Below, in pieces: positions 9,952 through 49,169 of a DNA stretch of 64,000 nucleotides. Source of the DNA: Mucispirillum schaedleri ASF457 (GTDB taxonomy: Bacteria > Chrysiogenota > Deferribacteres > Deferribacterales > Mucispirillaceae); assembly GCF_000487995.2 (NCBI RefSeq), contig NZ_CP097562.1, positions 1,423,001 to 1,487,000 of the forward strand, read 5' to 3'. The notes below the pieces were generated by a model. The model saw nothing but the letters and a program-made list of their open reading frames with translations, was not told the DNA's origin and did not search any database. The position numbers and the translations under genes were made by a program. Position 1 is the first letter of the stretch; each line of letters starts with the position of its first letter.

Positions 9952-12810
9952 ATGAAGTTTGTTAAAATGTTTTGCTCAATATACACAACTATCGTGTTAT
10001 TAGCAATTTATGCTATATTATGTGCAGCAGCAACATTTATTGAAGCTGATGCGTCATACGGCATACAGGCAGCTCAGGATATGATTTACCGCACAACATT
10101 ATTTAATATAGTGCATATTCTTTTGCTGCTTAATCTTATTGCAGTTTTTGTATACAGAAAAGTCTGGAAGTCAAAAAAGTATTACAGCATAATACTGCAT
10201 GTATCTTTTATAGTTATACTACTTGGTGCTGCATTAACAAGATTTTTTGGTTTTGAAGGTGTTGTGCATATTAGAGAGCATTCATCATCTAATGTAATCA
10301 TTACTGATGAAGAATATTTAAATATAAGAGTAGCCATTGAAGATAATATTTATTATACAAATATTCCTGTTCGTTATAATAGTGTAACTCAAACTAAGTT
10401 TCATGAAAAAATACCTTTAAATAATTCAGAGCTGGAAGTAAAATTTAATTCATACATTCAAGGAAATAAAAATACTCCGCCTGTTATTAATGTTACAGCA
10501 TCATATAATGGTGACAGTAAAACAATGGATTTACCGCAAAGCTATCTTGATGCAAATATTGGTGAAACATTTGAATTAGGTGGTATGTATTTTCAGCTTG
10601 TATGGGGTCCTGCAGAGATACCTGTTCCTTTTGAAATATATTTAGAAGATTTTATATTAACAAGATATCCGGGCTCAAAAAGTCCTTCTTCTTATAAGTC
10701 AAAAATATTAGTTACAGATTATGATGATGATTCCAGCTTTGGATATGAGATATTTATGAATAATGTGTTAGATTATAAAGGATATAGATTTTTTCAGTCA
10801 TCTTATGACCAAGATGAAATGGGAACAATTTTTAGTGTAAATAAAGACCCGGGTAAAATCCCAACATATATTGGCTATTTTTTATTAACAGTTGGTTTTA
10901 TACTTAGTTTCTTTGGAAAAGGAAGCAGAGTATGGAGACTAAGCCATTATCTTAAAAAACAGAAATTATATGTTTATTTTATAGCATTTTCATCATTTTT
11001 ATTACTATCTGCATCAAACCTTTATGCTGAAGATATTACTTTGCAAAATGATAACTGGATAGAAGTTGCTTATGCATCTAATATGGGTCAGAGTGATAAT
11101 GCAGCAGCTGATGAGCATGCAGCTCATGTGCCATCACAGGAAGATATTGATGGATTAATTAAAAATATTTCTGAAAAAATGCAGGCTCATTCAGAAAAAG
11201 CAGGCAGACTGCTTGTTCAGGATATGCAGGGTAGAATAAAACCCCTTGATACTCTTGCTATGGATATGGTTCACAAATTAATTAGAAAAGATAATTTTAA
11301 AGGAATGAACCATGTTGAAATATTTTTAGGTATGATGATGTATTATGACTATTTTCAGCATATTAAAATGTTTCCAACAAGCTCTGAAGAGTTAAGAGAA
11401 AAACTTGGAACTCCAAAAAATGAAAAATATGTTTCATTTGCAGATGCATATGGCGAAAATGGTGAATATAAACTTAAAGAATATATTGATGCAGCATACC
11501 AGTCAAACCCAGCACACAGGACAAAATTTCAAAAAGATTTAATCAAGTTTGATGAGAAAATGGGTATAGCATATTATATGTATACAGCACAGATGTTTTT
11601 AGTATTTCCTGATATTACAGGCAATACAACCGGCTTTTTATCCCCGGGTGTTGCAATGGCATCACTTGATAAGGATACTACGCTAAAAATACAGGATTTA
11701 TTGAAACAGTATTTTGAAGGTGTAGATAAAGGCTTAAAAGAAAACAACTGGCAGGATGCAGATAAATATTTGGGTTTAATCAGTGAGTTCCAAAGAACAA
11801 ATGGTGCTCATCTTATCCCAGCAGAAAGCCGTATAAGTGCAGAAATCATGATGAATAAATATAATCCATTTAAAAACTTAACTTATATTTATGTTTTACT
11901 TGGTATTATAATGTTTGTTTTTGTTATTACTGCTATTATAAAAAATAAAGCTGTAAACAGCACTAAGGGCATAATATTTACAGGAATAACAATACTTGCA
12001 GTTGTTCTGCATACTGCTGCATTAATATGCAGGTGGTATGTTGCAGGACATGCACCATGGAGTAACGCTTATGAATCTATGATATATATAGCATGGGCGG
12101 GTGCTCTTGCTGGTCTTTTATTCTTCCAAAGGTCGCTTTTAGCTATTGCAGCCACTAACTTTGTAGCAGGCACTACATTATTTGTTGCAAATTTAGGTTT
12201 TATGGACCCACAGATTGGCACATTAGTTCCAGTGTTAAAATCATACTGGCTTAATATCCATGTGTCAGTTATTACAGCAAGTTACAGCTTTTTTGGACTA
12301 TGTTTTGTGCTTGGTATTATCAGTATGATACTTTTTGTTTTAAGAAGTCCAAAAAGAGCACATATTGACCAAAGTATAGTAAATGTGCACTGCATTAATG
12401 AAATTAGTATGATTTTAGGCTTAGGTCTGCTTACAATCGGCACATTTTTAGGTGGTGTATGGGCAAACGAAAGCTGGGGCAGATACTGGGGATGGGACCC
12501 AAAAGAAACATGGTCGCTGATTACTATTGTAGCATACACAATAATACTCCATGCAAGATTTATTAAAAAACTAAATAACCCTTATATATTCAGTGTATTA
12601 AGTACACTTGGCTTTTATACTGTGATGATGACATATTTTGGTGTAAACTATTATTTAAGTGGCATGCACTCTTATGCATCAGGTGAGCCAGTGCCAATAC
12701 CAACATTCTTATATGTAATGGCTGCACTGCATATTGCATTAATTGCAGCATCTTTTATGAAAAGAAAACTTGCTATGCCATCTTTTTCACAAAATAAAGA
12801 CAATGCATAA
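9952..12810 (+). CDS. ccsBA: CcsBA cytochrome c synthase (System II, ResB-CcsA fusion)
   Basis: A 952-aa fused cytochrome c haem lyase. The ResB/CcsB half lies at about 1-330 with three early membrane helices, a periplasmic domain and a fourth helix. A periplasmic linker follows, then the CcsA half from about residue 640 with six to eight helices. Haem-handling signatures are visible: AGHAPWSNAYES (external histidine), the WWD-type motif GRYWGWDPKETWS and the late SGMHSY histidine. The enzyme exports haem and ligates it to CxxCH motifs in the periplasm. Fused forms (NrfI type) occur in Epsilonproteobacteria with multihaem nitrite enzymes, matching the neighbouring cytochromes. A separate System I cluster lies at 59-62 kb. 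Confidence 0.95.
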   Translation: MKFVKMFCSIYTTIVLLAIYAILCAAATFIEADASYGIQAAQDMIYRTTLFNIVHILLLLNLIAVFVYRKVWKSKKYYSIILHVSFIVILLGAALTRFFGFEGVVHIREHSSSNVIITDEEYLNIRVAIEDNIYYTNIPVRYNSVTQTKFHEKIPLNNSELEVKFNSYIQGNKNTPPVINVTASYNGDSKTMDLPQSYLDANIGETFELGGMYFQLVWGPAEIPVPFEIYLEDFILTRYPGSKSPSSYKSKILVTDYDDDSSFGYEIFMNNVLDYKGYRFFQSSYDQDEMGTIFSVNKDPGKIPTYIGYFLLTVGFILSFFGKGSRVWRLSHYLKKQKLYVYFIAFSSFLLLSASNLYAEDITLQNDNWIEVAYASNMGQSDNAAADEHAAHVPSQEDIDGLIKNISEKMQAHSEKAGRLLVQDMQGRIKPLDTLAMDMVHKLIRKDNFKGMNHVEIFLGMMMYYDYFQHIKMFPTSSEELREKLGTPKNEKYVSFADAYGENGEYKLKEYIDAAYQSNPAHRTKFQKDLIKFDEKMGIAYYMYTAQMFLVFPDITGNTTGFLSPGVAMASLDKDTTLKIQDLLKQYFEGVDKGLKENNWQDADKYLGLISEFQRTNGAHLIPAESRISAEIMMNKYNPFKNLTYIYVLLGIIMFVFVITAIIKNKAVNSTKGIIFTGITILAVVLHTAALICRWYVAGHAPWSNAYESMIYIAWAGALAGLLFFQRSLLAIAATNFVAGTTLFVANLGFMDPQIGTLVPVLKSYWLNIHVSVITASYSFFGLCFVLGIISMILFVLRSPKRAHIDQSIVNVHCINEISMILGLGLLTIGTFLGGVWANESWGRYWGWDPKETWSLITIVAYTIILHARFIKKLNNPYIFSVLSTLGFYTVMMTYFGVNYYLSGMHSYASGEPVPIPTFLYVMAALHIALIAASFMKRKLAMPSFSQNKDNA

Positions 12811-41802: not shown

Positions 41803-41874
41803 GGGGTCTATAGCGAAGGATGATTAGAGCGGATGCCTGCTGCGTAGGCGATAGTTCAAGTCTATCTAGGCCCA
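41803..41874 (+). pseudogene. Degenerate second copy of tRNA-Ile
   Basis: It begins GGGGTCTATAGC and ends GATAGTTCAAGTCTATCT plus AGGCCCA, matching the intact tRNA-Ile at both ends. The D-arm is scrambled (GAAGGATGATTAGAGCG) and the anticodon stem-loop is shortened around GCCTGCTGCGTAGGC. It cannot fold as a normal isoleucine tRNA. Confidence 0.75.
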
Positions 41875-45765: not shown

Positions 45766-46453
45766 TTATTTTTGATTAGTAATATCATTTTCTGAAGAAT
45801 TTAATTCAGAGATACTATAATATTTAATATAAATTCCAAGTGGATTTTTTGTTAAATCTTCTATACTTTCCACAGCAGTGGGTATTAAATATACTGTAAC
45901 TAAAGCCCTGTATCCTTTAATATAAAGCAGCACTCCTGATTTATCAAAAGTTTTTTCTTTCCAGTCTAATTGATAAGTATTAGATGTCATTTCTAATAAA
46001 GAGACAATTTCTACTTCTCTATTTATTTTTTTGCCTAATTCAAATGGATTTGTTGCTTTATCTTTATAAAAAACATTAGCTTTATTTATTGCAGGGTCAA
46101 CACTAACTGTTCTTAAAGTTTTTATAAAAGAAGCCACTTTTGCTCTAATAATTCTTTGGTCCAGTATAGTGCCTGCACGGATTTCACCACCACCAACAGT
46201 TTCTCCCAGTTTATTTACTTCAACAATATAAGGCACAAATTTTGATTGTGAACCTATATGAATAATTCCAGCAATATATATATAATACAAATCAATAAAA
46301 TGATTACAGTAATCAGTAGAAATTGTCTCTTTATTAGAGCTGTAAAAATCTGTATTTGCTAAATAACTCACTTATCTTTGCATTATATACATTTTTAGCA
46401 TTAGATAAAATATGTTCTTTATTGCTTCTTTTAAATTTATATAGTATATCCAT
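45766..46453 (-). pseudogene. TrbF/VirB8-like conjugation protein, degraded
   Basis: The main frame (45766-46371, 201 aa, GTG start) matches the inner-membrane TrbF family of conjugative type IV secretion. It has a membrane stretch YYIYIAGIIHIGSQSKFVPYIVEVNKLGE (about 28-56), then FIKTLRTVSVDPAINKANVFY, TYQLDWKE and ALVTVYLIPT with NPLGIYIKYYSISE near the end. The N-terminal cytosolic part appears in another frame from an ATG at 46453 (MDILYKFKRSNKE), so the gene is probably frameshifted near 46371. No other trb gene is complete here, so it is a remnant of a conjugative element. Confidence 0.7.
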
Positions 46454-47888: not shown

Positions 47889-48081
47889 TTTATTCTCCTT
47901 TTTACTAAAAATATTATTAGTATATTATATAATATATCTATTATTATTTCAACAAAAAGGCTTGAATTGATTGGTATTTTAATATACAAATTATCTGGCT
48001 ATTTAGTTGGATGGTCTTGCACAGGTGCGACTGGGTGGATTGGTTCTCTTTTCTCAACTTTAAAAAATGGAAGGGATGCCT

Positions 48082-48207
48082 ATGGTATATGATGATCATA
48101 TCATATTTTCATTATGTGTGCTATTAATGGCAATCATAATTTTTTGCATAAAAAATAACCACCTAGTGCGAATAAGTGGTTATTTTTTAATTATCAAGAT
48201 TAATTAA
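48082..48207 (+). CDS. Putative 41-aa single-helix membrane peptide (type I toxin-like)
   Basis: A short ORF starting MVYDDHIIFSLCVLLM, with a hydrophobic helix at about residues 7-22 and then IKNNHLVR. GGAAGGG lies 6 bases before the ATG. Size, single helix and position in front of a bidirectional hairpin resemble holin-like type I toxins. A caution is that the reading frame crosses the terminator hairpin (48150-48188) and its stop lies beyond it, so a terminated message would lack a stop codon. Confidence 0.35.
   Translation: MVYDDHIIFSLCVLLMAIIIFCIKNNHLVRISGYFLIIKIN
48150..48188. terminator. Bidirectional terminator in the inverted-repeat unit
   Basis: AAAAAATAACCAC (48150-48162) pairs with GTGGTTATTTTTT (48176-48188), with A and T runs on both sides, so it can end transcripts from either direction. 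Confidence 0.85.
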
Positions 48208-48255
48208 ACAGCCAACGAGGACTGTGACCCATCCAGTCCCCTGTGCTACTCTTAA

Positions 48256-48282
48256 TATAATAAATATTTTATATAAATTCAA
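48256..48282 (-). promoter_or_regulatory. Candidate minus-strand promoter for a convergent small RNA
   Basis: On the minus strand TTGAAT (48282-48277), 17 bases, TATATT (48259-48254). The predicted transcript of about 100 bases would start near 48246, carry a GGACTG...CAGTCC hairpin and end at the central terminator. Confidence 0.45.
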
Positions 48283-48422
48283 GCCTTTTTTACTTGTCTT
48301 TTTTTTCTTTTTAGTGTTTATTTATGCAAGGTTACATAGAATAAGTCCATAGCACATTGCGGACTGACAGTTAGTTACTCTGTATTTCCCATTAAATTAT
48401 CATTATGCTATGAGAAGAAGAT

Positions 48423-49169
48423 ATGATATTGTTAGATAATTATAAAGATGTATTAGATTATTATGCAAATACACCTGCAAATATGGTAGATAAGCAACAA
48501 TATAAATATGATGCAGGCACAAGTTTTGAATTAGATATAAATGATACAATCATTAAAAACTTTGATAGTTTTTTTCTTTATTGGCAAATAAAGTTTAGTT
48601 TTCATACTTTTTTTAATTGGACTGTAAATTTATCGCTAAATAATATTTTTACAAATCAACTCAATAATCAAAATAGTAACGATACAGATGTTAGTTTTTT
48701 ATTTAAAGATAAAAATAATATGTTTACAATAGACCATATGATAGTTACTCCTTATGCTGTATTCATTTTAGAAGCAAAAAATCATAAAGCCCAGACTAAA
48801 TATAAATCTGAATTGCATAAATGGCACATCATCAATGAAAAAAAGATTATCAATATTATTAATAATCCTGTTTTACAGGTGCTGAAATATAAAACAGTTG
48901 TTTCAACATTTATGTCCTATTATAAGATAAATTTGCCAATCATTCCTAAAGTGATTTTTAAACAGCAAGTAAATTTGGATGATATTACAGATAATGAAAA
49001 AAAATTGTGTATATATCCATGTGATTTATCAAAACTTATACATACATCAAAAAAAGATAATATTTTTCAACCAAATGAAGCTTTAAAATTTGCTAAAATA
49101 TTATTTTATTATGGATGCCATCCCATTGCATATGATGATAATAAGATAAACTGGAGTGTATCAAAATGA
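48423..49169 (+). CDS. NERD-domain protein
   Basis: A 248-aa soluble protein with a nuclease-related (NERD) domain at about residues 80-170. Visible features are the acidic DVSFLFKDKNNMFTIDHMIVTPYAVFILEAKNHK, which matches the D-H-x(n)-E-x-K core of restriction-endonuclease-like folds, and the following KWHIINEKK with NPVLQVLKYK (a conserved Q). The N-terminal 75 residues are not recognised. NERD proteins occur on plasmids and in defence or DNA-processing settings. The start of the next gene overlaps its stop by 4 bases. Confidence 0.75.
   Translation: MILLDNYKDVLDYYANTPANMVDKQQYKYDAGTSFELDINDTIIKNFDSFFLYWQIKFSFHTFFNWTVNLSLNNIFTNQLNNQNSNDTDVSFLFKDKNNMFTIDHMIVTPYAVFILEAKNHKAQTKYKSELHKWHIINEKKIINIINNPVLQVLKYKTVVSTFMSYYKINLPIIPKVIFKQQVNLDDITDNEKKLCIYPCDLSKLIHTSKKDNIFQPNEALKFAKILFYYGCHPIAYDDNKINWSVSK

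What the first reader, a model, noticed from the sequence alone, without database searches (positions are those of the whole stretch)
47954..48290. Palindromic 337-bp module: possible type I toxin-antitoxin or MITE
Perfect 15-bp inverted ends carry -35-like TTGAAT boxes facing inward. A toxin-like single-helix peptide (48082-48207) has an excellent ribosome site, and a predicted convergent RNA of about 100 bases meets it at a shared bidirectional terminator. This is the geometry of fst-like type I modules. Unlike those, the 5' parts are inverted repeats, so the two RNAs would resemble each other and be complementary mainly at the 3' ends. The ORF also runs through the terminator.
Basis: partly seen in the sequence, partly recalled or inferred. 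Interest (0 to 1): 0.7.

Follow-up and report, generated by a model that had tools for sequence, protein, structure and literature searches.

The report
New type I toxin-antitoxin family in Mucispirillum
The 337-base stretch is one copy of a previously undescribed family of tiny toxin-antitoxin modules, found on plasmids, prophages and conjugative elements of the gut bacterium Mucispirillum, in which a 25-residue membrane peptide appears to be silenced by an RNA from the opposite strand; no such RNA-controlled toxin has been reported from this phylum in the papers I could search.

Summary
The window (genus Mucispirillum, Deferribacterota) carries one of about 27 related modules: 6 in this chromosome, about 20 in eight of nine other Mucispirillum genomes, and one on a 3-kb mobilizable plasmid. 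All share convergent promoters, a bidirectional terminator, and (when intact) a 22-26-residue single-helix peptide behind a Shine-Dalgarno site. Many sit in prophages, conjugative elements, beside integrases, or on the plasmid.

Three RNA features are specific to each module when cognate and non-cognate parts are compared: (1) the toxin leader is complementary to its own ribosome site (p about 1.5e-4); (2) the leader is complementary to the 5' arm of its own terminator (p about 9e-4), which would close the mRNA end to end; (3) the 5' parts of the two RNAs share sequence (p at most 5e-5). It is the opposite of Fst par, where direct repeats make the RNAs complementary.

The 15-bp ends occur only here and are -35 context, not transposon ends. 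The ORF reads through the terminator because this copy has A6 where the nearest relatives have A7; it may be altered or inactive. No expression or toxicity data exist here.

The parts
47962..47990 (+). Presumed toxin promoter: -35 TTGAAT (47962-47967), 17-bp spacer, weak -10 TACAAA (47985-47990); transcript start near 47995
   Evidence: Sequence; in relatives the same position carries TTGTAA/TTGCCT-17-TTTATT. Start site inferred, not mapped.
47954..47968 (+). Left copy of the 15-bp inverted end AAAAAGGCTTGAATT (extended -35 context)
   Evidence: absent from the toxin side of other modules.
48276..48290 (-). Right copy of the 15-bp inverted end, the antitoxin -35 context
   Evidence: relatives have similar context here, e.g. 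AAAGACTTGAATT, AAAGGCTTGAAAT.
47995..48081 (+). Toxin mRNA 5' leader (87 nt)
   Evidence: leader length 44-112 nt across the family.
48019..48038 (+). Leader block shared with the antitoxin RNA (GCACAGGTGCGACTGGGTGG); 47996-48005 (TGGCTATTTA) is a second block
   Evidence: alignment; module-specific mimicry p<=5e-5.
48030..48038 (+). Leader segment ACTGGGTGG complementary to the 5' arm and loop of the own terminator (48159-48167, CCACCTAGT)
   Evidence: module-specific complementarity p about 1e-4 to 9e-4.
48045..48052 (+). Anti-Shine-Dalgarno segment TCTCTTTT, pairs with 48069-48076
   Evidence: leader x SD/AUG module-specific p about 1.5e-4.
48069..48076 (+). Shine-Dalgarno-like GGAAGGGA
   Evidence: Sequence; P(paired) 0.87.
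48082..48207 (+). Toxin-like ORF, 41 aa here; homologous part is the first 23 or so codons (25-aa peptide in relatives)
   Evidence: single hydrophobic helix; no Pfam or NCBIfam match.
48150..48155 (+). A6 run; A7 in the nearest relatives, where the reading frame ends in IKK-stop at the terminator's edge
   Evidence: L038, which also has A6, likewise reads through.
48149..48189 (.). Bidirectional terminator hairpin shared by both RNAs (the overlap and antisense region)
   Evidence: conserved in all modules, with compensatory changes.
48205..48249 (-). Antitoxin RNA 5' part with shared blocks (48246-48229 and 48214-48205); the antitoxin RNA runs about 48249 to 48146
   Evidence: antitoxin fold is a 5' hairpin plus terminator.
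48254..48282 (-). Antitoxin promoter TTGAAT-17-TATATT
   Evidence: in the 12-module alignment TTG, TATATT and several positions around them are invariant.
45766..46371 (-). Truncated VirB8-like conjugation gene 1.6 kb away, relic of a mobile element
   Evidence: Pfam VirB8 7e-23; 56% identical to the conjugative-element copy at L134.

Best explanation
This is a copy of a new family of type I toxin-antitoxin modules of Mucispirillum mobile elements. Shown by sequence: a plus-strand RNA encodes a small membrane peptide; a minus-strand RNA of about 75-105 nt starts at a strong promoter beyond the peptide gene; the two converge on one bidirectional terminator, so they are fully complementary over the terminator and the end of the reading frame. 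Supported by covariation: in the toxin mRNA the leader pairs with the ribosome site and with the 5' arm of the terminator, so the full-length mRNA is locked. [quoted passage not shown] its 5' part, which copies the leader's sequence, takes the leader's place as a trans blocker of the ribosome site or keeps the mRNA in the locked state; the duplex is degraded; loss of the element lets the longer-lived toxin mRNA be translated, and the peptide damages the membrane (addiction). The window copy carries a one-base slip (A6) that extends the peptide by about 16 residues, and it sits next to a conjugative-element relic, so its activity is uncertain.
For: About 27 module copies with the same order of parts: own genome and relatives and plasmid pRGF00059. 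Antitoxin promoter and terminator conserved, terminator with compensatory changes. Peptides: 22-26 aa, one hydrophobic helix, mostly an acidic start and basic end; dN/dS about 0.1-0.3 in four pairs. SD masked. Cognate versus non-cognate permutation on 13-18 modules: leader x own SD/AUG p about 1e-4 to 4e-3, leader x own terminator 5' arm p about 1e-4 to 1.5e-3, leader-antitoxin similarity p<=5e-5. Mobile context: parA/virB11 slot of a conjugative element, integrases, prophage tail genes, rep/mob plasmid. Known precedents: Fst par (PMC7472228), SprA2/SprA2AS with a non-overlapping 5' domain blocking the ribosome site (PMC6393315), AapA end-to-end locking (PMC6733600).
Against: No transcript, start-site or toxicity data. 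Whole 5'-part duplex between the two RNAs is no better than shuffles in most modules. Antitoxin 5' part x ribosome site is weak: helix test p 0.0065, energy test p 0.13, clear in L003, L074, L059, L116 but absent in L026 and L004. In the window's own subfamily the peptide evolves at dN/dS about 1, and the window copy about 2 on very few sites. Toxin promoter of the window copy is weak. Several copies are broken (L039, L072, L029).
Confidence: 0.8

Rival explanations
1. A miniature inverted-repeat transposable element: a non-autonomous mobile repeat whose 15-bp ends are transposase sites and whose ORF is fortuitous.
For: Perfect 15-bp ends found only as this pair; several related copies in the genome.
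Against: Other copies lack the 15-bp ends. The inverted repetition in relatives lies inside the transcribed parts, while upstream promoter stretches are barely more alike than non-cognate ones (p 0.03, carried partly by this copy). Flanks show no target duplication by eye. Copies keep an SD, a peptide and a terminator over large divergence. Copies travel with larger elements.
Confidence: 0.04
2. A toxin-antitoxin module whose 5' inverted repeats have no RNA role: they are kept alike by template switching between inverted repeats (quasi-palindrome correction), while the antitoxin acts only through the 3' overlap, as proposed for TxpA/RatA.
For: The window copy shows what such conversion would look like: its toxin promoter carries the antitoxin's -35 context. 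Antitoxin 5' part x ribosome site is not significant by energy.
Against: The repeats occur in all modules, stop near the start sites rather than running on, and in A1 and C modules the two shared blocks are in swapped order in the two RNAs, which simple template correction does not create. The leader is also constrained to pair with its own ribosome site and terminator.
Confidence: 0.3
3. A small regulatory RNA pair or an attenuator that controls a neighbouring gene, with the peptide as a leader peptide.
For: Short ORF, terminator, alternative pairings between leader and terminator arm.
Against: The neighbours differ between copies; the module includes its own opposite-strand promoter; it occurs as a self-contained unit on a plasmid with only rep and mob genes annotated.
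Confidence: 0.05
4. A dead relic: the family is a toxin-antitoxin family, but this particular copy is inactive after the frame slip and promoter change. (Compatible with the best explanation of the family.)
For: A6 slip, weak -10, dN/dS above 1, adjacent truncated VirB8 gene.
Against: The leader x terminator helix (9 bp) and SD masking are kept. The C-subfamily peptide of pRGF00059 normally ends inside the terminator, so reading into it is not in itself fatal.
Confidence: 0.45

Closest known systems
Fst/par modules (pAD1 par, S. aureus SprA1/SprA2), type I
   Same: Convergent promoters, shared bidirectional terminator, short single-helix peptide, SD masked by a 5' stem-loop, location on plasmids and other mobile elements (PMC7472228); in SprA2 the antitoxin's non-overlapping 5' domain blocks the ribosome site (PMC6393315).
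   Different: In par, direct repeats DRa/DRb make the 5' parts of the RNAs complementary; here the 5' parts are inverted repeats, so the RNAs are alike. Peptides lack the P-x-x-x-G motif and match no Pfam or NCBIfam model. Host phylum differs.
AapA/IsoA (Helicobacter) and hok/Sok
   Same: Toxin mRNA predicted to be locked by pairing of its 5' leader with its 3' end, with local anti-SD hairpins (PMC6733600).
   Different: There the 3' end masks the SD and is trimmed to activate; here the leader pairs with the terminator's own 5' arm, in competition with the terminator hairpin. The antitoxin lies at the 3' side and copies the leader instead of being antisense to it.
TxpA/RatA and cyanobacterial MsoT1/MsoA1 (3'-overlapping type I)
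   Same: Antitoxin overlaps the end of the reading frame and the 3' UTR (PMC12390103).
   Different: I know of no shared 5' blocks there; peptides unrelated by the searches run here.

Membership tests
Type I toxin-antitoxin (general) | Short hydrophobic peptide, under 60 aa, with one membrane helix | tested here: met
   22-26 aa in intact copies, maximum 17-residue hydropathy about 1.9-3.3 in the intact A and B copies; the diverged L064 is lower at 1.3 (which also lists broken copies).
Type I toxin-antitoxin (general) | Antisense RNA with its own promoter, complementary to the toxin mRNA | tested here: met
   Conserved opposite-strand promoter and terminator overlap. Sequence only; RNA not observed.
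Type I toxin-antitoxin (general) | Peptide toxic; RNA relieves toxicity at RNA level | not testable with these tools
   Needs expression experiments.
Fst/par | Convergent promoters and bidirectional terminator | tested here: met
Fst/par | Direct repeats DRa/DRb giving a second complementary region | tested here: not met
   Repeats are inverted. Whole 5' duplex no better than shuffles in most modules. Leader-antitoxin complementarity weak: helix p 0.008-0.05, within-group 0.02-0.09.
Fst/par | Fst peptide motif (PxxxG, charged tail) or family model match | tested here: not met
   No Pfam or NCBIfam match to any toxin family at E 10; no PxxxG in any peptide.
AapA/hok-like mRNA locking | 5'-3' long-distance pairing in the toxin mRNA | tested here: met
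   Leader x own terminator 5' arm module-specific, p 1e-4 to 1.5e-3; formed in the predicted minimum-energy fold of L003, L048, L074, L123, not of the window copy.
AapA/hok-like mRNA locking | 3' processing converts inactive to active mRNA | not testable with these tools
   Needs northern blots and structure probing.
MITE | Terminal inverted repeats shared by copies, with target duplication | tested here: not met
   15-mer found only as this pair; other copies lack it.
Rfam antitoxin or sRNA families | Match at gathering score | tested here: not met
   only rRNA and tRNA in the window; nothing significant at the module.

The most novel reading that the evidence does not exclude
A type I antitoxin that works by mimicry: instead of being antisense to the toxin leader, it carries a copy of the leader's own inhibitory sequences. 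Anchored by the 3' overlap, it would take over in trans the job of masking the ribosome site when the mRNA's own end-to-end lock opens.
Probability: 0.35. Interest if true: 0.8.

Novelty: new variant of a known kind. Interest (0 to 1): 0.6.

Why it matters
Type I systems are reported only from Proteobacteria, Firmicutes and Tenericutes, plus one cyanobacterial candidate (PMC12390103). A multi-copy family in Deferribacterota, on plasmids, prophages and conjugative elements of a common gut commensal, would extend the range and give a natural series of diverged modules in which RNA covariation can be read. The shared 5' sequences pose a directly testable question: can an antitoxin RNA act by resembling its target's leader rather than by being complementary to it?

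Tried and rejected
MITE: rejected. Fst-type direct-repeat complementarity: tested by duplex energy against dinucleotide shuffles and by cognate/non-cognate permutation; weak at best. Antitoxin 5' part x ORF, antitoxin 5' part x its own terminator arm, leader x antitoxin terminator arm: not significant. Rfam: nothing. Homology to named peptides: none in Pfam or NCBIfam. Wider distribution: models R1 and R2 found no module outside Mucispirillum among 46 genomes of the order; the one weak outside hit (G022) has no toxin-like ORF in the expected place. Viral contigs gave only unrelated matches; phage records none. About 25 permutation tests were run; the three results quoted as strong are the ones that survive a Bonferroni correction in the main sets.

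Full report
The window lies in a 2.35-Mb single-contig genome of the genus Mucispirillum (Deferribacterota). The genus assignment rests on the same-genus genomes that hold the closest module copies being deposited as uncultured Mucispirillum (contigs of identical length CALUWI010000007, CALVEY010000068, CAMEOC010000021). Species M. schaedleri is my inference from genome size and composition.

Checking the observation. The 15-bp inverted ends, the inward TTGAAT boxes, the 41-aa ORF, the bidirectional terminator and the inverted 5' parts are all present. The 15-mer occurs exactly twice in the genome, at these two ends. The whole stretch folds far better than shuffles on both strands.

A family, not a singleton. 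DNA search of the own genome found further copies at 517 kb, 1753 kb and 1770 kb, the last a tandem pair. Searches of relatives and two covariance models of the antitoxin strand extended this. My census is about 27 copies: own genome 6 (window, L002, L004, L003, L012, L074); G001 2, G002 1, G003 3, G004 5, G005 4, G006 2, G007 2, G009 1; and one on plasmid pRGF00059. A few of these are decayed. Three subfamilies can be told by peptide: A (M-V/I-Y...FYIKK), B (M..ESW/ESY...IK), C (plasmid MFEIYAFFIAITFLYTIIKNRL, L029, L064). L004 has a B-type peptide inside A-type flanks, so cores are exchanged. No copy was found outside Mucispirillum in 46 genomes of the order.

The plasmid. HG796800.1 (pRGF00059, 2,994 bp, mobilizable) carries a Rep3 initiator, a Mob_Pre relaxase and one C-type module with a model E-value of 1.5e-10. 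The name suggests the rat cecum collection of PMC3913684 (listed; I did not read it to confirm). A minimal plasmid of rep, mob and this module is the classic setting of an addiction cassette.

Mobile context. L074 sits in a conjugative element (ParA, ParB, integrase, VirB11-like ATPase, TrbC, VirB4-type, VirB8, CagX/VirB9, TrbI). In that element and in those of L026 and L027 the slot between parA and the virB11-like gene is occupied by a B module in one and an A module in the others. L002, L004, L023 and L064 lie directly upstream of a tyrosine recombinase gene. L059, L065, L123 and L146 lie among prophage tail or connector genes. The window copy is 1.6 kb from a truncated VirB8 gene, 56% identical to the conjugative-element version. 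Others (L003/L012, L025, L028, L048, L070, L116) are in ordinary chromosomal surroundings as far as seen.

The read-through ORF. In L002, L003, L025 and L026 the sequence ATAAAAAAATAACC (A7) ends the frame as I-K-K-stop at the edge of the terminator, so the peptide's last lysines are encoded by the antitoxin's U tract read from the other strand. The window copy has A6 at 48150-48155 and reads on for 16 residues; L038 has A6 too and does the same. In subfamily C the stop lies inside the terminator in the plasmid copy, so partial overlap with the terminator is not abnormal for the family.

RNA architecture. For each module I defined toxin leader, ribosome-site region, terminator arms and antitoxin 5' part, with start sites inferred from promoters. 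I then compared cognate with non-cognate combinations by permutation, over all modules and within subfamilies, on 18 modules and on reduced sets of 13-14 less related ones. Leader and antitoxin 5' part share module-specific sequence: p<=5e-5 in every set. Leader and own SD/AUG region are complementary: p 1.5e-4 by energy and 3e-4 by helix score in the 14-set, 5e-5 to 4e-3 over all modules in the other sets and up to 7e-3 within subfamilies. Leader and own terminator 5' arm are complementary: p 1e-4 to 9e-4 over all modules, up to 1.5e-3 within groups; with the antitoxin's arm it is not significant (p 0.08-0.3). Examples of compensatory change: AAGCGGUU/AACCGCUU (L074, L123), UAGGUGGUU/AACCGCCUA (L059), GUGGUUA/UAACCAC (L026), UAGGCGG/CCGCCUA (L064), ACUGGGUGG/CCACCUAGU (window). 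Predicted folds show an SD hairpin in most modules and the closing helix in L003, L048, L074 and L123. The antitoxin mostly folds as a 5' hairpin plus the terminator.

What the shared 5' blocks do is not settled. Complementarity of the antitoxin 5' part to the ribosome site is significant by helix score (p 0.006 in the full and 14-module sets, 0.057 in another reduced set) but not clearly by duplex energy (p 0.05-0.16), and it is strong in L003, L074, L059 and L116 only. The inverted repetition is confined to the transcribed parts; promoter stretches are hardly more alike than non-cognate ones (p 0.03), the window copy being the clear exception. In A1 and C modules the two shared blocks are in opposite order in the two RNAs. 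I favour an RNA role, by analogy with SprA2AS, whose non-overlapping 5' domain blocks the ribosome site (PMC6393315), but repeat-driven sequence correction is a live rival.

Selection on the peptide. dN/dS is about 0.1-0.3 in L048/L012, L059/L116, L065/L004 and L070/L146, and about 1 in subfamily A pairs, where hydrophobicity, length and charge pattern are nevertheless kept. The window copy has more replacements than silent changes on very few sites. Together with the slip and weak promoter this makes an altered or inactive copy plausible.

Limits. Nothing here shows transcription, toxicity or antitoxin action. Start sites are inferred. Modules are related by descent, so permutation p values are approximate even in the reduced sets (leaders up to 71% identical). 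About 25 tests were run and choices were adaptive.

Against the literature. Fst par shares the frame but has direct repeats and another peptide (PMC7472228). AapA and hok share end-to-end locking (PMC6733600). Type I systems were stated in 2025 to be known only from three phyla plus the first cyanobacterial case (PMC12390103), and the searches here found no paper describing one in Mucispirillum. C. difficile gives the precedent that type I modules stabilise mobile elements (PMC7699646).

Noticed in passing
G000:C1 516125, 517080, 517592, 1713161, 1733726, 1736091, 1741441, 1752245, 1753200: The palindrome ATTTTAGC(C/G)GCTAAAAT occurs 9 times, only within the two mobile-element regions that also hold modules and parA/parB genes; it could be the ParB (parS) site of these elements. 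Absent from the window.
   Followed up: partly
L134 6642-7376 to 10186-11136 versus L026 695-1432 to 1869-2858: The same slot of a conjugative element, between parA and the virB11-like gene, holds a B-type module in one genome and an A-type module in another, as if cassettes are exchanged.
   Followed up: partly
L004 1280-1557: Hybrid module: B-type peptide and terminator inside promoter and flank sequence 98% identical to the A-type module L002.
   Followed up: partly
L039, L072, L029, L038: Decayed modules: frameshifted or shortened peptides (L039, L072, L029) and one that has lost its leader (L038).
   Followed up: partly
window 48423-49169: ORF of 248 aa with a NERD (nuclease-related) domain directly beside the module; function unknown.
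   Followed up: no
window 41804-41874: A tRNA-like match barely above the Rfam threshold (30.5 bits) between two good tRNAs in the rRNA operon spacer.
   Followed up: no
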